From contig JANYHM010000033.1 in the NCBI GenBank assembly GCA_025359065.1, positions 1 through 42,651 on the forward strand: a DNA stretch of 42,651 bases. The letters run 5' to 3'. The position numbers were made by a program, and so were the translations under genes. This DNA comes from Synechococcales cyanobacterium GL140_1_metabinner_5_sub. Its GTDB lineage: Bacteria > Cyanobacteriota > Cyanobacteriia > Cyanobacteriales > Chamaesiphonaceae. The notes under the pieces are model-generated. The model was not told the DNA's origin. It searched no databases and saw only the letters and a program-made list of their open reading frames with translations. Of the stretch, positions 9,830-17,469 are shown piece after piece. Each line of letters opens with the position of its first letter. The first letter of the stretch is position 1.

Positions 9830-11794
9830 TTATGAGTATGAATATTCATAGCTAGACTGATTATGACTGTTACTTGTCCTTGGAAGCTGAGCATTGATGG
9901 AGTAATTCACCTCCAGCTCGCCTGTTTGTAACCACTTATCTAGCAGCGGAGGTTTTTGGACTTGTTGGAGATAAGCATGTAACTCTTGACCTTCCAGAAT
10001 TTCTTGCTCTTGTAAGATGCTAGCCATTTGCCGCAACAATGGTTCGTTGTGAGCCAGAATTTCTTGAGCTGCGTGGTGAGCATGATCAATCAGGTTTTTA
10101 ATGCCCCGATCAATTGTCGCTTCTACCTGAGGACTCAAAGGACGACGCGGACTATAACCACCCAGAAATTGGTTAGCAGAGCGGTCAAAGGCCATTGGCC
10201 CAAGCTGTTTACTCATGCCATAGATCGAAACATAGCGATCAGCTAAATCGGTGGCTTTTTGGATATCATCACTAGCACCAGTAGAGACTTTGCCCATAAT
10301 TAATTCCTCTGCCGATCGACCACCTAAAAGTATGGCGATTTGCCCCCGCAGCTCGTCTTCCACCATCAAAAACCGATCTTCTTGGGGCAGTTGCAAAGTA
10401 TAACCCAAGGCTGCTACTCCCCGAGGTACAATCGAGATTTTTTCGATTGTACCTGCTCCCGGCATTAAGGATCCCACGATCGCATGGCCGACTTCGTGGT
10501 AGGCCACAGTTTCTTTTTCGAGTTCGTTTAAGACCCGTGATTTTTTCTCTAGTCCGGCTAAGAGGCGCTCGATTGCTTCTCCAAAGTCCGCCATAGTGAC
10601 AGATTCTTGATTATGACGAGCGGCTAGAAGCGCAGCCTCATTGATTAAATTGGCCAAGTCAGCTCCAGCAAAACCGGGAGTCTGAGCAGCGATTTTTAAC
10701 AAATCTACATCGGCAGCTAGTTGTACCTGACGCACATGGACTAATAGAATTGAATGTCGTCCAATTTTATCAGGGCGATCCACTACAATTTGCCGATCGA
10801 AGCGACCAGGACGCAACAATGCTGGGTCTAATACCTCGGGGCGGTTAGTAGCCGAGAGCAAAATTACGCCGGTATTAGCGGCGAAACCATCCATTTCTGA
10901 TAATAACTGATTCAAAGTCTGTTCTCGTTCATCGTTGCCACCGATCGAATTGGCTGCTCTAGATTTACCCAAAGCATCTAATTCATCGATGAATACGATA
11001 CAGGGAGCTTGCTGTTTTGCTTGTTCAAATAATCCTCGTACCCGAGCGGCACCTACTCCCACAAACATCTCAATAAATTCTGAGCCAGAAATGCTAAAAA
11101 ACGGTACACCGGCTTCACCAGCGATCGCTCTGGCTAACAGGGTTTTACCGGTGCCTGGAGGGCCAACTAATAATACGCCTTTGGGAATTTTGGCTCCCAA
11201 CTTGACATATTTTTCGGCATGTTTGAGGAAATCTACAATTTCCTGGAGTTCGGCTTTGGCTTCATCGATACCGGCAACATCGTTAAAGGTTACGCCGGTA
11301 TCCCCGGCACTGTAAGCTTTGGCATGACTATCACCAATACCAAGCATTCCTAAGCCACTAGCTTGATTGCCGGTGAATTTTGACCAAAGTACTAAAAATA
11401 GTAAGGGTATACCCACCCAACTTAAGACTGTCCACAAACCATTAAACGGACTTGGTACTGTGGCTGAATGCTCGACCCGATTAGTGCGAAGAATTTGCGC
11501 GAGTTCAGGATCTTCGGGTAAGCGTCTGGTGATTAGAATATTTTTAGCTGAAGAATCTTTGCGTGTGGCTAGAGTGCCGGGAGCTGTTCTTAGTTCGTAG
11601 CGAATTTCCTGGTCATCAATTGTAGCTTTCGCTACATCTCCGGCTTCTACTTGCTGAATAAATTCACTATAAGGCTTACGGGTATAGTGTTCACTTGGCC
11701 AAGCTACCATCAATACTACCCAGGTAATAAAAATTAATCCAGTGGGGATCAATAAGTGTGATTTATCAGATTTACGGTTGTTGATGATCGGCAT
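9830..11794 (-). CDS. ftsH: ATP-dependent zinc metalloprotease FtsH
   Basis: FtsH is a membrane AAA+ protease, working as a hexamer, that degrades damaged or misfolded membrane proteins. In cyanobacteria some paralogues remove photodamaged photosystem II subunits. At 654 residues it has two membrane helices (~15-31 and ~117-137) around a small periplasmic or lumenal domain. The Walker A motif is GPPGTGKT (211-218) and Walker B is 'CIVFIDELDALG' (265-276). The second region of homology spans ~311-334 ('SATNRPEVLDPALLRPGRFD') and the zinc site is HEVGH (433-437), with the third ligand region at 'STGASDDIQKATDLA'. Cyanobacteria usually encode four FtsH proteins. The unusually divergent N-terminal domain and Tyr/Ser-rich tail do not let me assign which. 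Divergent from it there is only a short unconvincing frame. Confidence 0.95.
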   Translation of the reverse strand: MPIINNRKSDKSHLLIPTGLIFITWVVLMVAWPSEHYTRKPYSEFIQQVEAGDVAKATIDDQEIRYELRTAPGTLATRKDSSAKNILITRRLPEDPELAQILRTNRVEHSATVPSPFNGLWTVLSWVGIPLLFLVLWSKFTGNQASGLGMLGIGDSHAKAYSAGDTGVTFNDVAGIDEAKAELQEIVDFLKHAEKYVKLGAKIPKGVLLVGPPGTGKTLLARAIAGEAGVPFFSISGSEFIEMFVGVGAARVRGLFEQAKQQAPCIVFIDELDALGKSRAANSIGGNDEREQTLNQLLSEMDGFAANTGVILLSATNRPEVLDPALLRPGRFDRQIVVDRPDKIGRHSILLVHVRQVQLAADVDLLKIAAQTPGFAGADLANLINEAALLAARHNQESVTMADFGEAIERLLAGLEKKSRVLNELEKETVAYHEVGHAIVGSLMPGAGTIEKISIVPRGVAALGYTLQLPQEDRFLMVEDELRGQIAILLGGRSAEELIMGKVSTGASDDIQKATDLADRYVSIYGMSKQLGPMAFDRSANQFLGGYSPRRPLSPQVEATIDRGIKNLIDHAHHAAQEILAHNEPLLRQMASILQEQEILEGQELHAYLQQVQKPPLLDKWLQTGELEVNYSINAQLPRTSNSHNQSSYEYSYS

Positions 11795-12065: not shown

Positions 12066-14039
12066 TCAATTATCTTTCAGCAACAATTTTTGTAATTGAT
12101 TAACTTGCTCATAGGCTTCTTGCAGCATTTCCAGGCTGGCTTGATCTTGGATAATTGCTTGGTCTTGTAAGGAGTGCAGGGAATGATTGATCGCTGCTAA
12201 AGCCATCTGGACCTGATCCTGAATCGTGGATTTTGCATGGTTATCATTGCGGCGCTGCCTTTCAGCGGCTTTTAATCTCTGTACCTGCTGGCGCTCCATT
12301 AAATTGGTAATCCGCGAAATAATTTCTGGCCCTGCTACCGGCTTATTCACAAAATCGTTAGCCCCGATTGCAAACACTTGTCGAATTAAGTTTGCTTCTA
12401 AATAGGCAGTCAAAAAAATAATAGGGAGAGCAGACCAATCTGAATGGTTGCGAATAGCTTTACATAAATCTAGCCCGCTCATGATCGGCATTTCGATATC
12501 CAAAATCAATAAATCTGGTTTGGCTACCGGCAATATTTCCCAGATTTTTTGCGGATCAGATAATGTAGTGACCTTCAAACCCCAAGGTGTAAGCAGCGCT
12601 TGCAAAATAGCTAAGACTTTTAGATCGTCATCGACCACTAATACATGGGTTTGGCTAGATTCGGCCACCTCGATCGCCCCAAATATCTCCTCTATAATAT
12701 CGGTGGTACTAGTGGAGGTAATAACAGTATAAGATCCTAGCTGAGTCATCGCTTGGTCTAAAACGTCAAAATCAGCTAACGCAATCACCGGTACCGGGGG
12801 GACGTGTTTGTTTACCTCTACCAATAATTTTAAAGTTTCCTCTGAGTTAGCTACTGCCGCCAACAAAATACTGCGAGTGCGATAATTTTGTAGTCGTGAT
12901 CTGGCTACAACGATCGTAGGTACAATTTGTACCGACCAATTACGCTCACTGGCCATTGATTGAATTGCTGAATTGAAATTGACATCTGCTGATATTAAAA
13001 GAATATCAATTGTGATATGTGGCTCAAAACTGTGTGAATCGCTAGTAGTCATTGGTTTATCTAGCTCTTCACGCAAAGCTGTGACTAGGGAAAAAAGCCA
13101 TTGCCTCTGTTGAGCAGTCAAGTTTTGATAACCAGTCAACAGCGTTTCAATTTGGCGTGCCAATTCAGAACTAAGCGAAAAGCCAAATGTCCCTAAAGAG
13201 CCAGCCAAAGAATGGGCAATATTTTGACCGATTGCTTGCTGATCGGATTGGAGATCTTGGCTCAAAAATCCTATGGCAAGTTGCTCTAATACTTCAACTT
13301 GCTCATACACTTGCCCCTTAAATTTTTCCCAGGTATCAGTTAGCAGTAGCGCTGTAGTTGCTGGAATCACCGGTTTTAGTCGATAGCCAATGCCATAAAC
13401 CGTCTCAATAAAATCTGCGGCGGCTCCGACTTTTTTGAGCTTTTGACGCAAGCCCTTGATGTGGGTACGGATCGCTTCTTCTCCTGGTGTGCCATCGTAA
13501 GACCAGAGATGGTCTAAAATTGCACTACAGCTAAAAACCCGTTTGCTGTTGCGCAGCAGCAACTCTAGCAAAGCATATTCTTTGGGGGTGACTGGCACTA
13601 CCAAATCAGCAAATGTTACAGTGGTGCTCACCGGATCAAGTTGCAAATTTCCCCAGGCTAAAATTGGTGTTGAAGAAGTATTACTGCGCCGCAGCAATGA
13701 CCGAATCCGAGCTATTAGCTCCTCTGGATCAAATGGCTTACCCAAATAATCATCGGCCCCAGCATTTAGACCTCTGGTGCGATCGGCAGGAGAATCTAAA
13801 GCAGTAAGCAATAAAATTGGCACAGTATTGCCTCTAGCTCGAATCTCCTGACACACACTCACACCGTCTTTTTTGGGCAAGGTAACATCCATTAGGATCA
13901 TGTCATACTCGTAGGCATCACTCAAATCCAAGCCCACTTGCCCATTGCTTGCTAAGTCCACAGCGTATCTGTGGGTTTCCAGAATGGTCTCGATGAGTGA
14001 AGAAATAGTCGGATCATCCTCAACCACCAGAATTCTCAT
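12066..14039 (-). CDS. OmpR-type response regulator with HPt, pseudo-receiver and second receiver
   Basis: This multidomain regulator has 657 residues. REC1 (1-118) has phospho-acceptor Asp51 ('MILMDVTLPKKDG') and Lys101. The winged-helix DNA-binding domain spans ~128-222 ('PVTPKEYALLELLL', 'AIRTHIKGLRQKLKK'). An HPt domain lies at ~235-325 with His276 in 'NIAHSLAGSLGTFGF'. Residues ~343-458 resemble a receiver but have no acceptor Asp. The last receiver (465-585) has Asp514 ('LLILDIEMPIMSG') and Lys566. The C-terminal 70 residues are helical and Gln-rich, a likely coiled coil. It is divergent from the hybrid kinase gene, 109 nt between starts. I infer that the HPt takes phosphate from the kinase's receiver and passes it to REC1 to control DNA binding. 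The target genes are unknown; self-regulation of the shared intergenic region is plausible. Confidence 0.9.
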   Translation of the reverse strand: MRILVVEDDPTISSLIETILETHRYAVDLASNGQVGLDLSDAYEYDMILMDVTLPKKDGVSVCQEIRARGNTVPILLLTALDSPADRTRGLNAGADDYLGKPFDPEELIARIRSLLRRSNTSSTPILAWGNLQLDPVSTTVTFADLVVPVTPKEYALLELLLRNSKRVFSCSAILDHLWSYDGTPGEEAIRTHIKGLRQKLKKVGAAADFIETVYGIGYRLKPVIPATTALLLTDTWEKFKGQVYEQVEVLEQLAIGFLSQDLQSDQQAIGQNIAHSLAGSLGTFGFSLSSELARQIETLLTGYQNLTAQQRQWLFSLVTALREELDKPMTTSDSHSFEPHITIDILLISADVNFNSAIQSMASERNWSVQIVPTIVVARSRLQNYRTRSILLAAVANSEETLKLLVEVNKHVPPVPVIALADFDVLDQAMTQLGSYTVITSTSTTDIIEEIFGAIEVAESSQTHVLVVDDDLKVLAILQALLTPWGLKVTTLSDPQKIWEILPVAKPDLLILDIEMPIMSGLDLCKAIRNHSDWSALPIIFLTAYLEANLIRQVFAIGANDFVNKPVAGPEIISRITNLMERQQVQRLKAAERQRRNDNHAKSTIQDQVQMALAAINHSLHSLQDQAIIQDQASLEMLQEAYEQVNQLQKLLLKDN

Positions 14040-14148
14040 AGACTAATTCACCATAAACTGCATATTGATCGGTTAAAGGGGAAGAATAGCATCTGACCCC
14101 TCCTGACATTAATATTAATGATAGAAGAAATTTTGATCCTGTGCTTTT

Positions 14149-17100
14149 ATGTCTTCTCCTAGCCTACTCCAGAATTTACCCAAATTGGCCTCGATTATTG
14201 ATCGGCAGCCATTGATAGTAGATCCTGACATGTTACTAGTAGAAGTGATTACTTTGATGAGTCAGGTCAAAGGACGTAAATGTCTGTTGCCTGATGTCGT
14301 CAATGATGAAAATATCTCTGTAAAATCACCAGAAATATTGATCAACAGACCGTATAGTTCGGTTTTGATTTTAGCTGCTGAAAAATTGGTGGGTACTTTA
14401 ACTGAGCGAGATTTAGTCAGAATCATTGCTTGTCAACAAAATCTGGAAGAGATAAAAGTATCAGAAGTAATGACTACAGCACCATTGATTTTGGTGCTAT
14501 CAAATCATCATACCGTGATGAATGCTCTAAGCATTTTCCAACAACACCATATTAGACTGCTGCCGATTTTGGATAAACAGGAGCAGCTTATTGGGATCGT
14601 TACTCCAGAGCATATTCGTCAAATTTTGCAGCCAGTAAATCTTTTGAAATTCAGAACTGTTGCAGAAGGTATGACCACTGAGCTGATATGGGCTACTCCG
14701 ACTACCTCAATTTTGCGCATAGCACAAATTATGACGGAGCACAGTATCAGTTCGATCGTCATTGTAGACGAGCAACAGCTACCAGTTGGCATGGTCACAG
14801 AGCAAGATATTGTGCAGTTTCAAGTGTTAGAGCTAGATCTAAAGCATTTACTGGCACAATTGGTGATGAGTAGCCCAGTGTTTTGTTTACAACCTGACGA
14901 TTCTTTATGGTCGGCTCAACAGATTATGCAGGCCGAAAATATTCGGCGATTGGTAGTTACCAATGAACAAGGTGAATTGCAGGGGATTTTAACCCAGTCT
15001 GATTTGTTGCAATTACTTGATCCGTTAGAAATGCTTTATTTAGTAGAAAAGCTCCAAACTGAAATGACGCAGCGAACGGCAGAACTGGAGCAGAGCAACC
15101 AAGAGTTACGGTTAGAAATGATCAGGCGACAACAAATCGAAGATGACTTAGAACTGCGGGTAGCAGGGAGAACTATCGAGCTAGCTGTGCGCACCCAAGA
15201 ACTACAAGCTGAAGTAGATAAATATCAATTTCAAAAATATGCTTTAGATCGATCAACTATCGTCGCAGTTACCGACCATCGCGGTGTGATCACTTATGTG
15301 AATAAACAGTTTCGCCAGATTTCTCAGTATTCTACTGATGAGCTGATTGGGAAAACCCACCGCTTAATCAACTCCGGGCACCACCCACCAGAATTTTTCC
15401 AGCAACTCTGGTCAGATATTTCTAATGGCCAAGTGTGGCGTGGTGAAATTAAAAATAGAGCTAAAGATGGTAGCTATTACTGGGTTGCTACTACTATTGT
15501 GCCATTTTTGGACGATCATAGTAAGCCAACTCAGTACTTATCGGTTCGTTTCGACATTACTGATCGTAAGCAAGCCGAAGAATCACTTAAACAGAGTGAA
15601 CAAAAATTTAGAGCAATCTTCGACGGCACCTTCCAGTTTATTGGCCTACTAGATACCAAAGGAATCCTTCTGGAAGCGAATCGTACAGCATTGGCGGCTA
15701 TCGGAGCTAAACCTGCCGATGTGATTGGTCAACCATTTTGGTCAACTCTTTGGTGGAATCACTCACCTGATTTACAAATTCAACTACAACAAGGAATTGT
15801 AGCGGCTGCTCAAGGCCAACTGATCAGATTTGAGGCCAAACATTTTTTGACTGACGGTTCTTTTATTACTGTAGATTTTTCGCTTAGCCCCATTACTGAT
15901 GAAACTGGCAAGGTTATAATGCTGATTCCAGAAGGGCGAGATATCAGTGATCGCAAAGCCGCAGAGCAAAAAATTCAGGAACAAGCTACGCTGCTAGATA
16001 TTGCCACAGATGCGATCATCGTGCGAGATTTACAACATCATATTCAATTTTGGAACAAAGGCGCAGAATCTATTTATGGATGGTCAGCAGCAGAAGCGAT
16101 CGGTCAATCCACAAGTCAGTTTTTCTGTCCAGAAGCTTCATTACAACCAGCCATGACAGAGGCTTTAACCACAGTGGTCGCCACAGGATCATGGCAAGGT
16201 GAGCTACATAAGATTACTAAAGCTGGCAAAAAAATAGTAATTCAAAGTCGCTGGACTCTAGTGCGTGACGAGGCTGGTCATCCTCAATCGATTCTTAGTG
16301 TTGATACTGATGTAACGGAAAAACAAATGTTAGAGCAGCAGTTTTTGCGCGCTCAAAGGCTAGAAAGCTTGGGCACTTTGGCTAGTGGCATTGCCCATGA
16401 TCTAAACAATGTCCTTACGCCCATTATGGGCGCAGCTCAGCTTTTACCCCGCACTCTCAAAAATTTAGATGAGCGCAATCAAAGACTATTAAACATGTTA
16501 GTCGATAGCTCTAAGCGCGGGAGTAATTTAGTTAAGCAAATTCTGACTTTTGCCAGAGGTGTAGATGGTGAACGCACAGTTCTCCAAGTGCGGCATATTG
16601 TGACTGAAATTATTAGTGTCGCTCGACAAACGTTTCCGCGATCAATCGATATTAGCTTGGATGCGCCTAGTCGAGAACTATGGTTAGTCAGTGCCGATGC
16701 CACCCAAATTCATCAGGTATTAATGAATTTGTTTGTGAATGCCCGAGATGCCATGCCTGACAGTGGACAAATTTTGGTTAAGATCGAAAATATTGTAATC
16801 AACGAAACTTATGCCAAACTGCATCTACAACCAGTGATCGGGTCTTATGTGGTAATTACCATTGGTGATACAGGAGTAGGCATGAATAGTGAAATGCTCG
16901 ATCAAATTTTCGATCCATTCTTCACTACAAAAGAAACTGGCACAGGATTAGGTCTATCCACCGTAGTTGGAATCCTGAAAGCTCATGGCGGAGCAATTAA
17001 TGTTTATAGTGAAGTAGGACGAGGTAGCTGCTTTAAAATATATTTACCGGCTGTAGATAGCCCGGAAGCCGAAGCTCAGCAATCAGTCAGCGAATTATAT

Positions 17101-17469
17101 GACGGCCAGAACAAAATAGTATTGGTCGTAGACGATGAAATATCTGTCCGCTCCATTACCAAAGAATCTTTACTAGCCTATAATTACAATGTGATCGAAG
17201 CCTGTGATGGAGTCGAGGCGATCGCCCTCTATGCCAGAAACCACAAAGAGATTGATGTGGTGCTAATCGATATGATGATGCCTAATTTAGATACTCCCTC
17301 AACTATTCGGGCTTTGCGTCGCATTGATCCACAGGTAAAAGTAGTGGCCATGAGTGGTTTGGCGACTAATCAAGAAGTAGTCAAAAAATCCGGAGTCAGT
17401 GATTTTCTAACTAAGCCATTTACAACTGAAGATATGTTACAAACATTAAAAAATACCCTCCAAGAATGA
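14149..17469 (+). CDS. Soluble hybrid histidine kinase: CBS pairs, PAS domains, kinase, receiver
   Basis: This 1106-residue protein has no membrane segment. Four CBS motifs form two pairs (~16-160 and ~170-290), with typical ends 'VGTLTERDLV', 'IGIVTPEHI', 'VGMVTEQDIV' and 'QGILTQSDLL'. CBS pairs usually bind adenine nucleotides. A coiled coil (~296-362) leads to three PAS/PAC units (~362-478, ~484-605, ~612-728). The kinase core has H-box His750 ('SGIAHDLNNVLTPIMG'), N-box ('LFVNARDAM', ~861-869), 'GDTGVGM' (906-912), 'FDPFFTTK' and 'GTGLGLSTV'. The C-terminal receiver (988-1106) has Asp1041 and Lys1089. 'AHDLNN' marks the H-box type common in hybrid kinases. The divergent regulator next door supplies the HPt and output, so the pair likely forms one relay sensing energy state or redox through CBS and PAS. 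The signal is inferred. Confidence 0.92.
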   Translation: MSSPSLLQNLPKLASIIDRQPLIVDPDMLLVEVITLMSQVKGRKCLLPDVVNDENISVKSPEILINRPYSSVLILAAEKLVGTLTERDLVRIIACQQNLEEIKVSEVMTTAPLILVLSNHHTVMNALSIFQQHHIRLLPILDKQEQLIGIVTPEHIRQILQPVNLLKFRTVAEGMTTELIWATPTTSILRIAQIMTEHSISSIVIVDEQQLPVGMVTEQDIVQFQVLELDLKHLLAQLVMSSPVFCLQPDDSLWSAQQIMQAENIRRLVVTNEQGELQGILTQSDLLQLLDPLEMLYLVEKLQTEMTQRTAELEQSNQELRLEMIRRQQIEDDLELRVAGRTIELAVRTQELQAEVDKYQFQKYALDRSTIVAVTDHRGVITYVNKQFRQISQYSTDELIGKTHRLINSGHHPPEFFQQLWSDISNGQVWRGEIKNRAKDGSYYWVATTIVPFLDDHSKPTQYLSVRFDITDRKQAEESLKQSEQKFRAIFDGTFQFIGLLDTKGILLEANRTALAAIGAKPADVIGQPFWSTLWWNHSPDLQIQLQQGIVAAAQGQLIRFEAKHFLTDGSFITVDFSLSPITDETGKVIMLIPEGRDISDRKAAEQKIQEQATLLDIATDAIIVRDLQHHIQFWNKGAESIYGWSAAEAIGQSTSQFFCPEASLQPAMTEALTTVVATGSWQGELHKITKAGKKIVIQSRWTLVRDEAGHPQSILSVDTDVTEKQMLEQQFLRAQRLESLGTLASGIAHDLNNVLTPIMGAAQLLPRTLKNLDERNQRLLNMLVDSSKRGSNLVKQILTFARGVDGERTVLQVRHIVTEIISVARQTFPRSIDISLDAPSRELWLVSADATQIHQVLMNLFVNARDAMPDSGQILVKIENIVINETYAKLHLQPVIGSYVVITIGDTGVGMNSEMLDQIFDPFFTTKETGTGLGLSTVVGILKAHGGAINVYSEVGRGSCFKIYLPAVDSPEAEAQQSVSELYDGQNKIVLVVDDEISVRSITKESLLAYNYNVIEACDGVEAIALYARNHKEIDVVLIDMMMPNLDTPSTIRALRRIDPQVKVVAMSGLATNQEVVKKSGVSDFLTKPFTTEDMLQTLKNTLQE

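What the first reader, a model, noticed from the sequence alone, without database searches (positions are those of the whole stretch)
12066..17469. Divergent gene pair encoding a complete phosphorelay
The kinase has H750 and D1041. The regulator has HPt H276, REC1 D51 with an OmpR winged helix, and a further REC D514. Together they hold the full His-Asp-His-Asp chain, with HPt and output on one protein and the kinase free of membrane segments. Fusion of HPt into an OmpR-type regulator, with CBS pairs on the sensor, makes this an unusual candidate system for sensing energy charge.
Basis: partly seen in the sequence, partly recalled or inferred. Interest (0 to 1): 0.6.

Follow-up and report, generated by a model that had tools for sequence, protein, structure and literature searches.

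The report
RcaC-type phosphorelay with flavin-sensor kinase
Two back-to-back cyanobacterial genes encode a sensor kinase and a DNA-binding regulator that together hold every part of a four-step phosphate relay; the regulator is of a kind already known from light-colour control (RcaC), while the kinase carries what looks like a flavin redox sensor, so it probably reads the redox state of the cell rather than light colour.

Summary
The HPt/OmpR fusion is not unusual: it is the RcaC architecture, tested on two rcaE-rcaF-rcaC loci recognised through the solved RcaE structure; I collected 58 such regulators. On a tree the window protein is a separate subfamily, not an RcaC orthologue. Kinase and regulator co-occur in 7 of 11 family genomes (in one, only a kinase remnant), kinase alone in 1, neither in 3; close linkage is seen in four. 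The divergent adjacent layout is limited to the genus: 2 of 36 regulators with a nearby or fused kinase. Energy-charge sensing by CBS is untested. Redox has better support: PAS1's best solved relatives are the FAD sensors MmoS, Aer and NifL, with matching flavin-contact residues. The kinase's own receiver probably replaces RcaF. New variant of a known kind.

The parts
12066..14039 (-). RcaC-type regulator, 657 aa: REC1 - OmpR winged helix - HPt - Asp-less receiver - REC2 - helical tail
13701..14033 (-). REC1 (residues 3-113), phospho-acceptor D51 at 13887-13889
   Evidence: Pfam Response_reg; D51 in 57 of 57 rows
13377..13598 (-). OmpR-type winged-helix DNA-binding domain (residues 148-221)
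   Evidence: Pfam Trans_reg_C 5e-22
13059..13331 (-). HPt domain (residues 237-327), H276 at 13212-13214
   Evidence: Pfam Hpt 1.4e-7; H276 in 57 of 57 rows; four helices in the model
   Evidence: alternating strand/helix receiver topology in the model; Asp position is Ala here, Asp in 29 of 57 rows
12291..12647 (-). REC2 (about residues 465-583), D514 at 12498-12500
   Evidence: second Pfam Response_reg stretch; D514 in 55 of 57 rows
14040..14148 (.). 109-bp divergent intergenic region
14149..17469 (+). hybrid histidine kinase, 1106 aa: 4 CBS - long helix - 3 PAS - HisKA - HATPase - REC, no clear membrane segment
14200..14628 (+). first CBS pair (about residues 18-160)
   Evidence: Pfam CBS; motif positions 82 and 149
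14650..15024 (+). second CBS pair (about residues 168-292)
   Evidence: Pfam CBS; motif positions 214 and 279
15259..15606 (+). PAS1 (residues 371-486), FAD type as in MmoS/Aer/NifL; H404, W421, N436, R467 kept
15619..15957 (+). PAS2 (about residues 491-603)
15985..16326 (+). PAS3 (about residues 613-726)
16369..16560 (+). HisKA with H750 (16396-16398)
16696..17052 (+). HATPase_c ATP-binding domain
17119..17448 (+). kinase receiver with D1041 (17269-17271), proposed to stand in for the separate RcaF
   Evidence: domain and residue; the role is inferred

Best explanation
A soluble four-step phosphorelay of the RcaC kind in which the separate RcaF receiver has been replaced by a receiver fused to the kinase. 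Proposed steps (all inferred, none assayed): (1) PAS1 binds FAD and reads cytosolic redox state, with the CBS pairs as a second, probably nucleotide-type input; (2) H750 autophosphorylates; (3) phosphate passes to D1041 on the same protein; (4) to H276 in the regulator's HPt; (5) to D51 of REC1, which switches the OmpR winged helix on DNA. The Asp-less middle receiver is structural, and REC2 (D514) is a second phosphate site that gates or drains H276. Targets are probably stress and proteostasis genes (ftsH next door in the genus; hsp20 or flavoprotein genes beside the regulator in the sister genus).
For: Domains and residues; invariance of D51 and H276. Same architecture in two rcaE-rcaF-rcaC loci whose kinases match solved RcaE (7ckv). 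Kinase and regulator co-occur in 7 of 11 family genomes, kinase only 1, neither 3 (Fisher p 0.024, uncorrected for relatedness); they are linked, in three different arrangements, in G000/G001, G002 and G003. RcaC-type regulators lie within 250 bp of, or are fused to, a histidine kinase in 23 of 58 cases, and two are regulator and kinase in one chain (L099, L101). 34 of 58 have a lone receiver nearby (corrected by one); the window and G001 have none, but their kinases carry a receiver. PAS1: best solved relatives MmoS 5.5e-42, Aer, NifL; the Aer flavin contacts H53, W70, N85, R115 (PMC9668731, passages) all have counterparts by alignment.
Against: No phosphotransfer, FAD or DNA-binding datum was found for these proteins. 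Intact, adjacent copies of both genes are seen only in G000 and G001: in G003 the linked copies are both interrupted (uninterrupted copies of each lie elsewhere, unlinked), in G002 the kinase is split over two contigs, and in G006 only a kinase remnant from residue 809 is found, with unrelated sequence before it; counting G006 as lacking the kinase gives p 0.088. In G004 the regulator is followed by a different CBS-PAS kinase whose catalytic core is 26% identical, so partners can be exchanged. The two trees do not mirror each other fully. REC2 could serve the HPt by itself, making D1041 dispensable. Aer's Arg57 contact is Asn here, as in MmoS. One kinase of the clade (L188, second copy in G010) shows neither the CBS match nor the flavin-type motif. 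The kinase model is poor (mean pLDDT 53).
Confidence: 0.55

Rival explanations
1. The relay runs inside the regulator: H750 phosphorylates REC2 (D514), which passes phosphate to H276 and then D51; the kinase receiver only tunes kinase or phosphatase activity.
For: D514 is kept in 55 of 57 rows, including regulators with a separate lone receiver nearby, so it has a role of its own next to the HPt.
Against: 34 of 58 regulators have a lone receiver gene nearby (corrected by one), which would be needless if REC2 did the job; in RcaE/F/C the published order is RcaE to RcaF to RcaC (PMC8256508, passages).
Confidence: 0.2
2. Simple two-component system: H750 phosphorylates D51 directly and the HPt/REC2 part serves another pathway or acts as a phosphate sink.
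For: Many HDLNN-type kinases act on single receivers (recalled); G004 shows the regulator beside another kinase.
Against: A fused receiver on the kinase and an invariant HPt on the regulator are unnecessary for this.
Confidence: 0.12
3. One reading: the CBS pairs sense adenylate energy charge (AMP/ATP or SAM).
For: Thr-x-x-Asp motif in three of four CBS units; CBS-bearing kinases stand near 7 of 58 RcaC-type regulators, in several lineages.
Against: The motif (recalled as a ribose-binding signature) does not name the ligand; the fourth unit's Asp is Asn in all four sister-genus rows and in the order-level row of the 7-row alignment; no binding datum.
Confidence: 0.2
4. The neighbours are not partners; the kinase acts on a remote regulator.
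For: Divergent layout is rare (2 of 36); the genome holds many kinase-like places (84 unconfirmed first-look candidates); linkage is lost or partners exchanged in G004.
Against: Co-occurrence and retained linkage in part of the family.
Confidence: 0.15

Closest known systems
RcaC of the RcaE-RcaF-RcaC system (type III chromatic acclimation)
   Same: REC(D)-winged helix-HPt(H)-degenerate receiver-REC(D) in the same order and similar length (628-629 aa against 657); phosphorelay with a neighbouring kinase
   Different: 38-39% identity to the two RcaC proteins used, separate subfamily on the tree; kinase has CBS and FAD-type PAS and no GAF domain; receiver fused to the kinase instead of a separate RcaF; divergent genes
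RfpB of far-red acclimation (RfpA-RfpB-RfpC)
   Same: DNA-binding regulator with more than one receiver, working with a kinase and a CheY-like receiver (PMC4390838, passages)
   Different: described there with two receivers flanking the DNA-binding domain; phytochrome partner
MmoS / NifL / Aer FAD-type PAS sensors
   Same: PAS1 sequence and FAD-contact residues
   Different: here in a cyanobacterial CBS-PAS hybrid kinase; flavin not shown
CckA-ChpT-CtrA phosphorelay
   Same: hybrid kinase with one receiver (second-best NCBIfam hit is a CckA model), HPt step, OmpR-type output (recalled)
   Different: 312.5 bits against a cut-off of 1000; the HPt step is fused to the output regulator instead of a separate ChpT (recalled)
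CdgK-CdgS of Anabaena
   Same: cyanobacterial four-step relay between two linked genes (PMC9927289, passages)
   Different: HPt on the kinase; output is a diguanylate cyclase

Membership tests
RcaC-type hybrid OmpR regulator (architecture class) | REC with Asp, OmpR winged helix, HPt with His, C-terminal REC with Asp, in this order | tested here: met
RcaC-type hybrid OmpR regulator (architecture class) | degenerate middle receiver as in the two RcaC proteins used (Lys at the Asp position there, Ala here) | tested here: met
   not shared by the whole class (Asp kept in 29 of 57 rows)
RcaC proper (orthologue of the chromatic-acclimation regulator) | groups with RcaC from rcaE-rcaF-rcaC loci on a tree | tested here: not met
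   window in a 7-row family clade (100/100); L113/L117 RcaC elsewhere
RcaC proper (orthologue of the chromatic-acclimation regulator) | neighbouring RcaE-like bilin GAF kinase and lone RcaF receiver | tested here: not met
   neighbour is the CBS-PAS kinase, no lone receiver within 6.5 kb; no GAF family listed for the kinase
RcaC proper (orthologue of the chromatic-acclimation regulator) | binding to the L box of pigment genes | not testable with these tools
   needs DNA-binding assays
FAD-type (MmoS/Aer/NifL) PAS domain | conserved Trp in helix F (main determinant, PMC10468136, passages) plus His and Asn | tested here: met
   W421, H404, N436, also R467
FAD-type (MmoS/Aer/NifL) PAS domain | bound, redox-active flavin | not testable with these tools
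   needs purified protein
CckA | NCBIfam equivalog score above cut-off | tested here: not met
   312.5 bits against 1000
Adenylate-sensing CBS proteins | nucleotide binding by the CBS pairs | not testable with these tools
   motif present in 3 of 4 units; ligand unknown

The most novel reading that the evidence does not exclude
A lineage-specific cytosolic redox phosphorelay of cyanobacteria: a low-potential FAD PAS domain and two CBS pairs jointly gate one hybrid kinase, which drives an RcaC-type regulator that was recruited away from light-colour control to control protein quality (FtsH, Hsp20) and redox enzymes, the RcaF shuttle having been absorbed into the kinase.
Probability: 0.25. Interest if true: 0.65.

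Novelty: new variant of a known kind. Interest (0 to 1): 0.38.

Why it matters
RcaC-type regulators are numerous (58 collected here), but the ones I know to have been studied in depth belong to light-colour control (recalled). This pair offers one whose input can be guessed from sequence (flavin redox) and tested with single domains. A 2026 review of redox signalling in cyanobacteria has no match for FAD, flavin, phosphorelay or RcaC in its main text (PMC13421787, word search only), so a flavin-gated phosphorelay would be an addition to that field. It would also show how a three-protein relay can be shortened to two by moving the shuttle receiver onto the kinase.

Tried and rejected
Of its 80 loci I examined the open frames of 18 (L107-L122, L172, L178); from L123 on the table suggests mostly ordinary two-domain regulators. 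Two of the 18 proved to be rca loci, but absence from that list means nothing.

CckA membership was considered from the top NCBIfam hits and rejected on score.

A conserved DNA element upstream of the regulator was found in five relatives and considered as an operator; it is absent from the window's own genome (0 exact matches) and the loose matches in the window do not clearly exceed chance (5 found, 2.33 expected, 8 of 100 shuffles with at least 5), so it is not part of the explanation.

Kinase structure: the model is too poor (mean pLDDT 53) and I did not search with it. The fold search of the regulator model listed OmpR-type proteins, PleD-like proteins and single receivers (50 rows shown); none of these is described as an HPt protein, so the HPt rests on Pfam, invariance and the predicted helices.

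Counts: the interrupted regulator L072 and contig-edge loci were kept in the 58; L072 is left out of the tree and of the 57-row counts. The script's figure of 35 regulators with a lone receiver includes one false case (in L072 it is the broken regulator's own first piece), so I give 34. A first version of the count picked short duplicate loci and was discarded. Seven of the 58 have no BLAST match to the window's HPt but the His column is His in all 57 rows. The Fisher tests ignore relatedness. The chance rate of kinase adjacency uses an assumed gene number (about 3700) and unconfirmed candidates, so I do not use its p-value.

G006's kinase turned out to be a remnant beginning about 90 bases from a contig end with unrelated sequence before it, not merely a gene cut by the contig end as I had thought; I lowered the main confidence from 0.60 to 0.55 and raised the non-partner rival from 0.12 to 0.15 for this.

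Papers: PMC2580696 and PMC179199 are not held; the in vivo work on RcaC's Asp and His residues (Li and Kehoe 2005) and the four-step phosphorelay paper (Kehoe and Grossman 1997) were seen only as entries in reference lists. That RcaC carries an HPt I tested on L113 and L117. PMC12540587, PMC5784247, PMC8739951, PMC9953108 and PMC12632262 were word-searched only.
Full report
What is there. The window is contig C75 of a 3.92-Mb genome. The gene at 12066-14039 (-) encodes a 657-aa regulator, the gene at 14149-17469 (+) a 1106-aa hybrid kinase, with 109 bp between them. Pfam finds two receivers, an OmpR-type winged helix and an HPt domain in the regulator, and CBS, PAS, HisKA, HATPase and one receiver in the kinase. 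I add two features. First, regulator residues 346-461 fold in the model as a third receiver, whose acceptor Asp is Ala. Second, four CBS units (motif positions 82, 149, 214, 279) are followed by three PAS domains, of which the first is of the flavin type.

The regulator is of a known kind. In a search of 60 related genomes all 60 have some match (often only a plain OmpR-type regulator), and at least 24 have a match running from the start of the window protein to residue 578 or beyond (rows, a capped list). I aligned 57 regulators, window included: D51 57 of 57, H276 57 of 57, D514 55 of 57, middle-receiver Asp in only 29 of 57. The architecture recalls RcaC. To test this I looked for real rca loci: in Pleurocapsa sp. 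CCALA 161 (L113) and Mastigocoleus testarum (L117) a kinase, a lone receiver and such a regulator stand in a row on one strand, and both kinases match the solved RcaE GAF domain (7ckv, E 8e-63 and 4e-63). Their regulators carry Response_reg, Trans_reg_C and Hpt, align with the window protein at 38 and 39% identity and also have a degenerate middle receiver, with Lys at the Asp position. A paper passage describes RcaC with three receivers and a winged helix (PMC4390838). A published census counts 312 RR-HPt, 130 RR-RR-HPt and 72 RR-RR-RR-HPt proteins (PMC4558063, passages).

It is not RcaC itself. On the 57-row tree the window protein sits in a 7-row clade of its own family (100/100), grouped with a second regulator type of the same family (together 12 rows, 99/97); L113 and L117 lie elsewhere. 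Of the five second-type regulators that I put in the tree, four (G002, G007, G008, G010) have a lone receiver next to them, as RcaC works with RcaF; the fifth (G009, L200) starts at a contig end. G003 and G004 have further such regulators that I did not fetch.

Are the two genes partners? In 11 genomes of the family, regulators of the clade occur in G000, G001, G002, G003 (two, one interrupted), G004, G006 and G010, and kinases of the matching 10-row clade in the same seven plus G007; G005, G008 and G009 have neither, G008 being only 77% complete. Fisher p is 0.024; it is 0.088 if G006 is counted as lacking the kinase, because there only a remnant from residue 809 on is found, with unrelated sequence before it near a contig end. 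In G007 the kinase stands after a flavoprotein gene that is cut by the contig end, the side where the regulator would be expected. Linkage: adjacent and divergent in G000 and G001; in G003 divergent, with genes for Hsp20, two FAD oxidoreductases and an NmrA-like protein between them, and with both regulator and kinase interrupted by inserted reading frames; in G002 the kinase start lies 1.6 kb downstream of the regulator on the same strand, the kinase being split over two contigs. In G010 regulator and kinase are on different contigs, each near an end. G004 is a counter-example: its regulator is followed by a different CBS-PAS kinase with 26% identity in the catalytic part, its kinase of the right clade being on another contig. 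G003's second regulator (L071) and second kinase (L193) each group with G004's only ones (L073, L192), which suggests joint inheritance, but the trees disagree elsewhere: G002's regulator groups with L071/L073, its kinase with those of G003 (the linked, interrupted copy), G006 and G007.

Across all 58 RcaC-type regulators collected (interrupted and contig-edge ones included), 36 have a histidine kinase within 6.5 kb or fused, 34 a lone receiver (35 by the script, one false), 7 a CBS-bearing kinase; the nearest kinase is on the same strand in 32, opposite in 2 (window and G001), fused in 2. In 23 of 58 the kinase is within 250 bp or fused (counted). The fusions L099 (1080 aa) and L101 (1770 aa) hold regulator, PAS domains and kinase in one chain. 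This general habit supports a functional link between such regulators and their neighbours.

What does the kinase sense? The best solved relatives of PAS1 (371-486) are MmoS (3ewk, 5.5e-42), Aer (8dik, 3e-21, and a second Aer entry) and NifL (2gj3, 7e-16). The Aer paper names H53, N85, R115 and W70 as flavin contacts and gives the MmoS counterparts H132, N164 and R195 (PMC9668731, passages); a PAS survey names the Trp as the main determinant of FAD binding (PMC10468136, passages). The window has H404, W421, N436, R467 at these places (positions; matched by me on the alignments, counting Aer residues from recall of its numbering). A strict motif for the His, Trp and Asn part, run over the open frames of 137 of the sources held, matched only kinases of this clade, from six genomes: G000, G001, G003, G004, G007, G010. 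The Arg is seen in the four aligned rows that have this PAS. Within the clade, L188 (second G010 kinase) lacks the motif and the CBS match, and three members are truncated or interrupted. So redox is the best-supported input. For the CBS pairs, Thr-x-x-Asp is present in units 1, 3 and 4 and His replaces Asp in unit 2; unit 4 has Asn in the four sister-genus rows and the order-level row. That motif as a ribose-binding signature is recalled. The ligand is open.

How it probably works. Inferred order: H750 to D1041 to H276 to D51, then DNA binding. The kinase's own receiver would do the work of RcaF, since the window and G001 lack a lone receiver near the pair. The roles of REC2 and of the Asp-less receiver are not shown. 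Targets: ftsH follows the regulator on the same strand, 271 bp away, and in the same order in G001; in the sister genus hsp20 lies next to the regulator in G002, G003 and G010, a flavoprotein gene in G006, neither in G004. Stress and proteostasis is a guess from these neighbours.

Verdict. New variant of a known kind; interest moderate. My literature searches listed no paper that I recognised as being on this pair; most subscription journals are not in that library.

Noticed in passing
L102:8961-11342, L077:8059-10350 and others: 12 of 57 RcaC-type regulators carry an intact GG[DE]EF motif in the C-terminal part (Pfam GGDEF found in L102 and also in L077, which is not among the 12): a DNA-binding regulator with HPt and a diguanylate cyclase domain in one chain. 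The window lineage has a helical tail there instead.
   Followed up: partly
L099:6571-9813 and L101:4811-10123: Single-chain fusions of an RcaC-type regulator with PAS domains and a histidine kinase (1080 and 1770 aa), each followed by a lone receiver gene.
   Followed up: partly
upstream of the regulator in L068 (G001), L069 (G002), L072 (G003), L074 (G006), L011 (G010): A 12-base element lies 26-29 bases before the regulator's start in five relatives: 5 of the 10 exact matches in the six genomes searched are at the regulator, none in the window's genome. Possible operator or 5' UTR element.
   Followed up: partly
L072:4238-18027: In G003 the regulator and the kinase linked to it are both interrupted by inserted reading frames, while another copy of each is uninterrupted elsewhere in that genome. 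The inserts look like transposase genes (not tested).
   Followed up: partly
L072:7916-12398, L069:9971-13894: Cluster in the sister genus beside the regulator: hsp20, CrtI-like and amine-oxidase-like flavoproteins, in G003 also an NmrA-like protein. The window's genome has a relative of the CrtI-like gene elsewhere (C28, 80% identity) and one short hsp20 match (57-aa frame).
   Followed up: partly
window 9830-11794 (-): FtsH protease gene on the same strand just downstream of the regulator; same order in G001; ftsH genes also lie within the fetched stretches around the regulators of L088 and L101.
   Followed up: no
L116, L205, L088, L091, L073: CBS-bearing PAS kinases with other catalytic parts also stand near RcaC-type regulators, so CBS input to this kind of relay may have arisen more than once.
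   Followed up: partly
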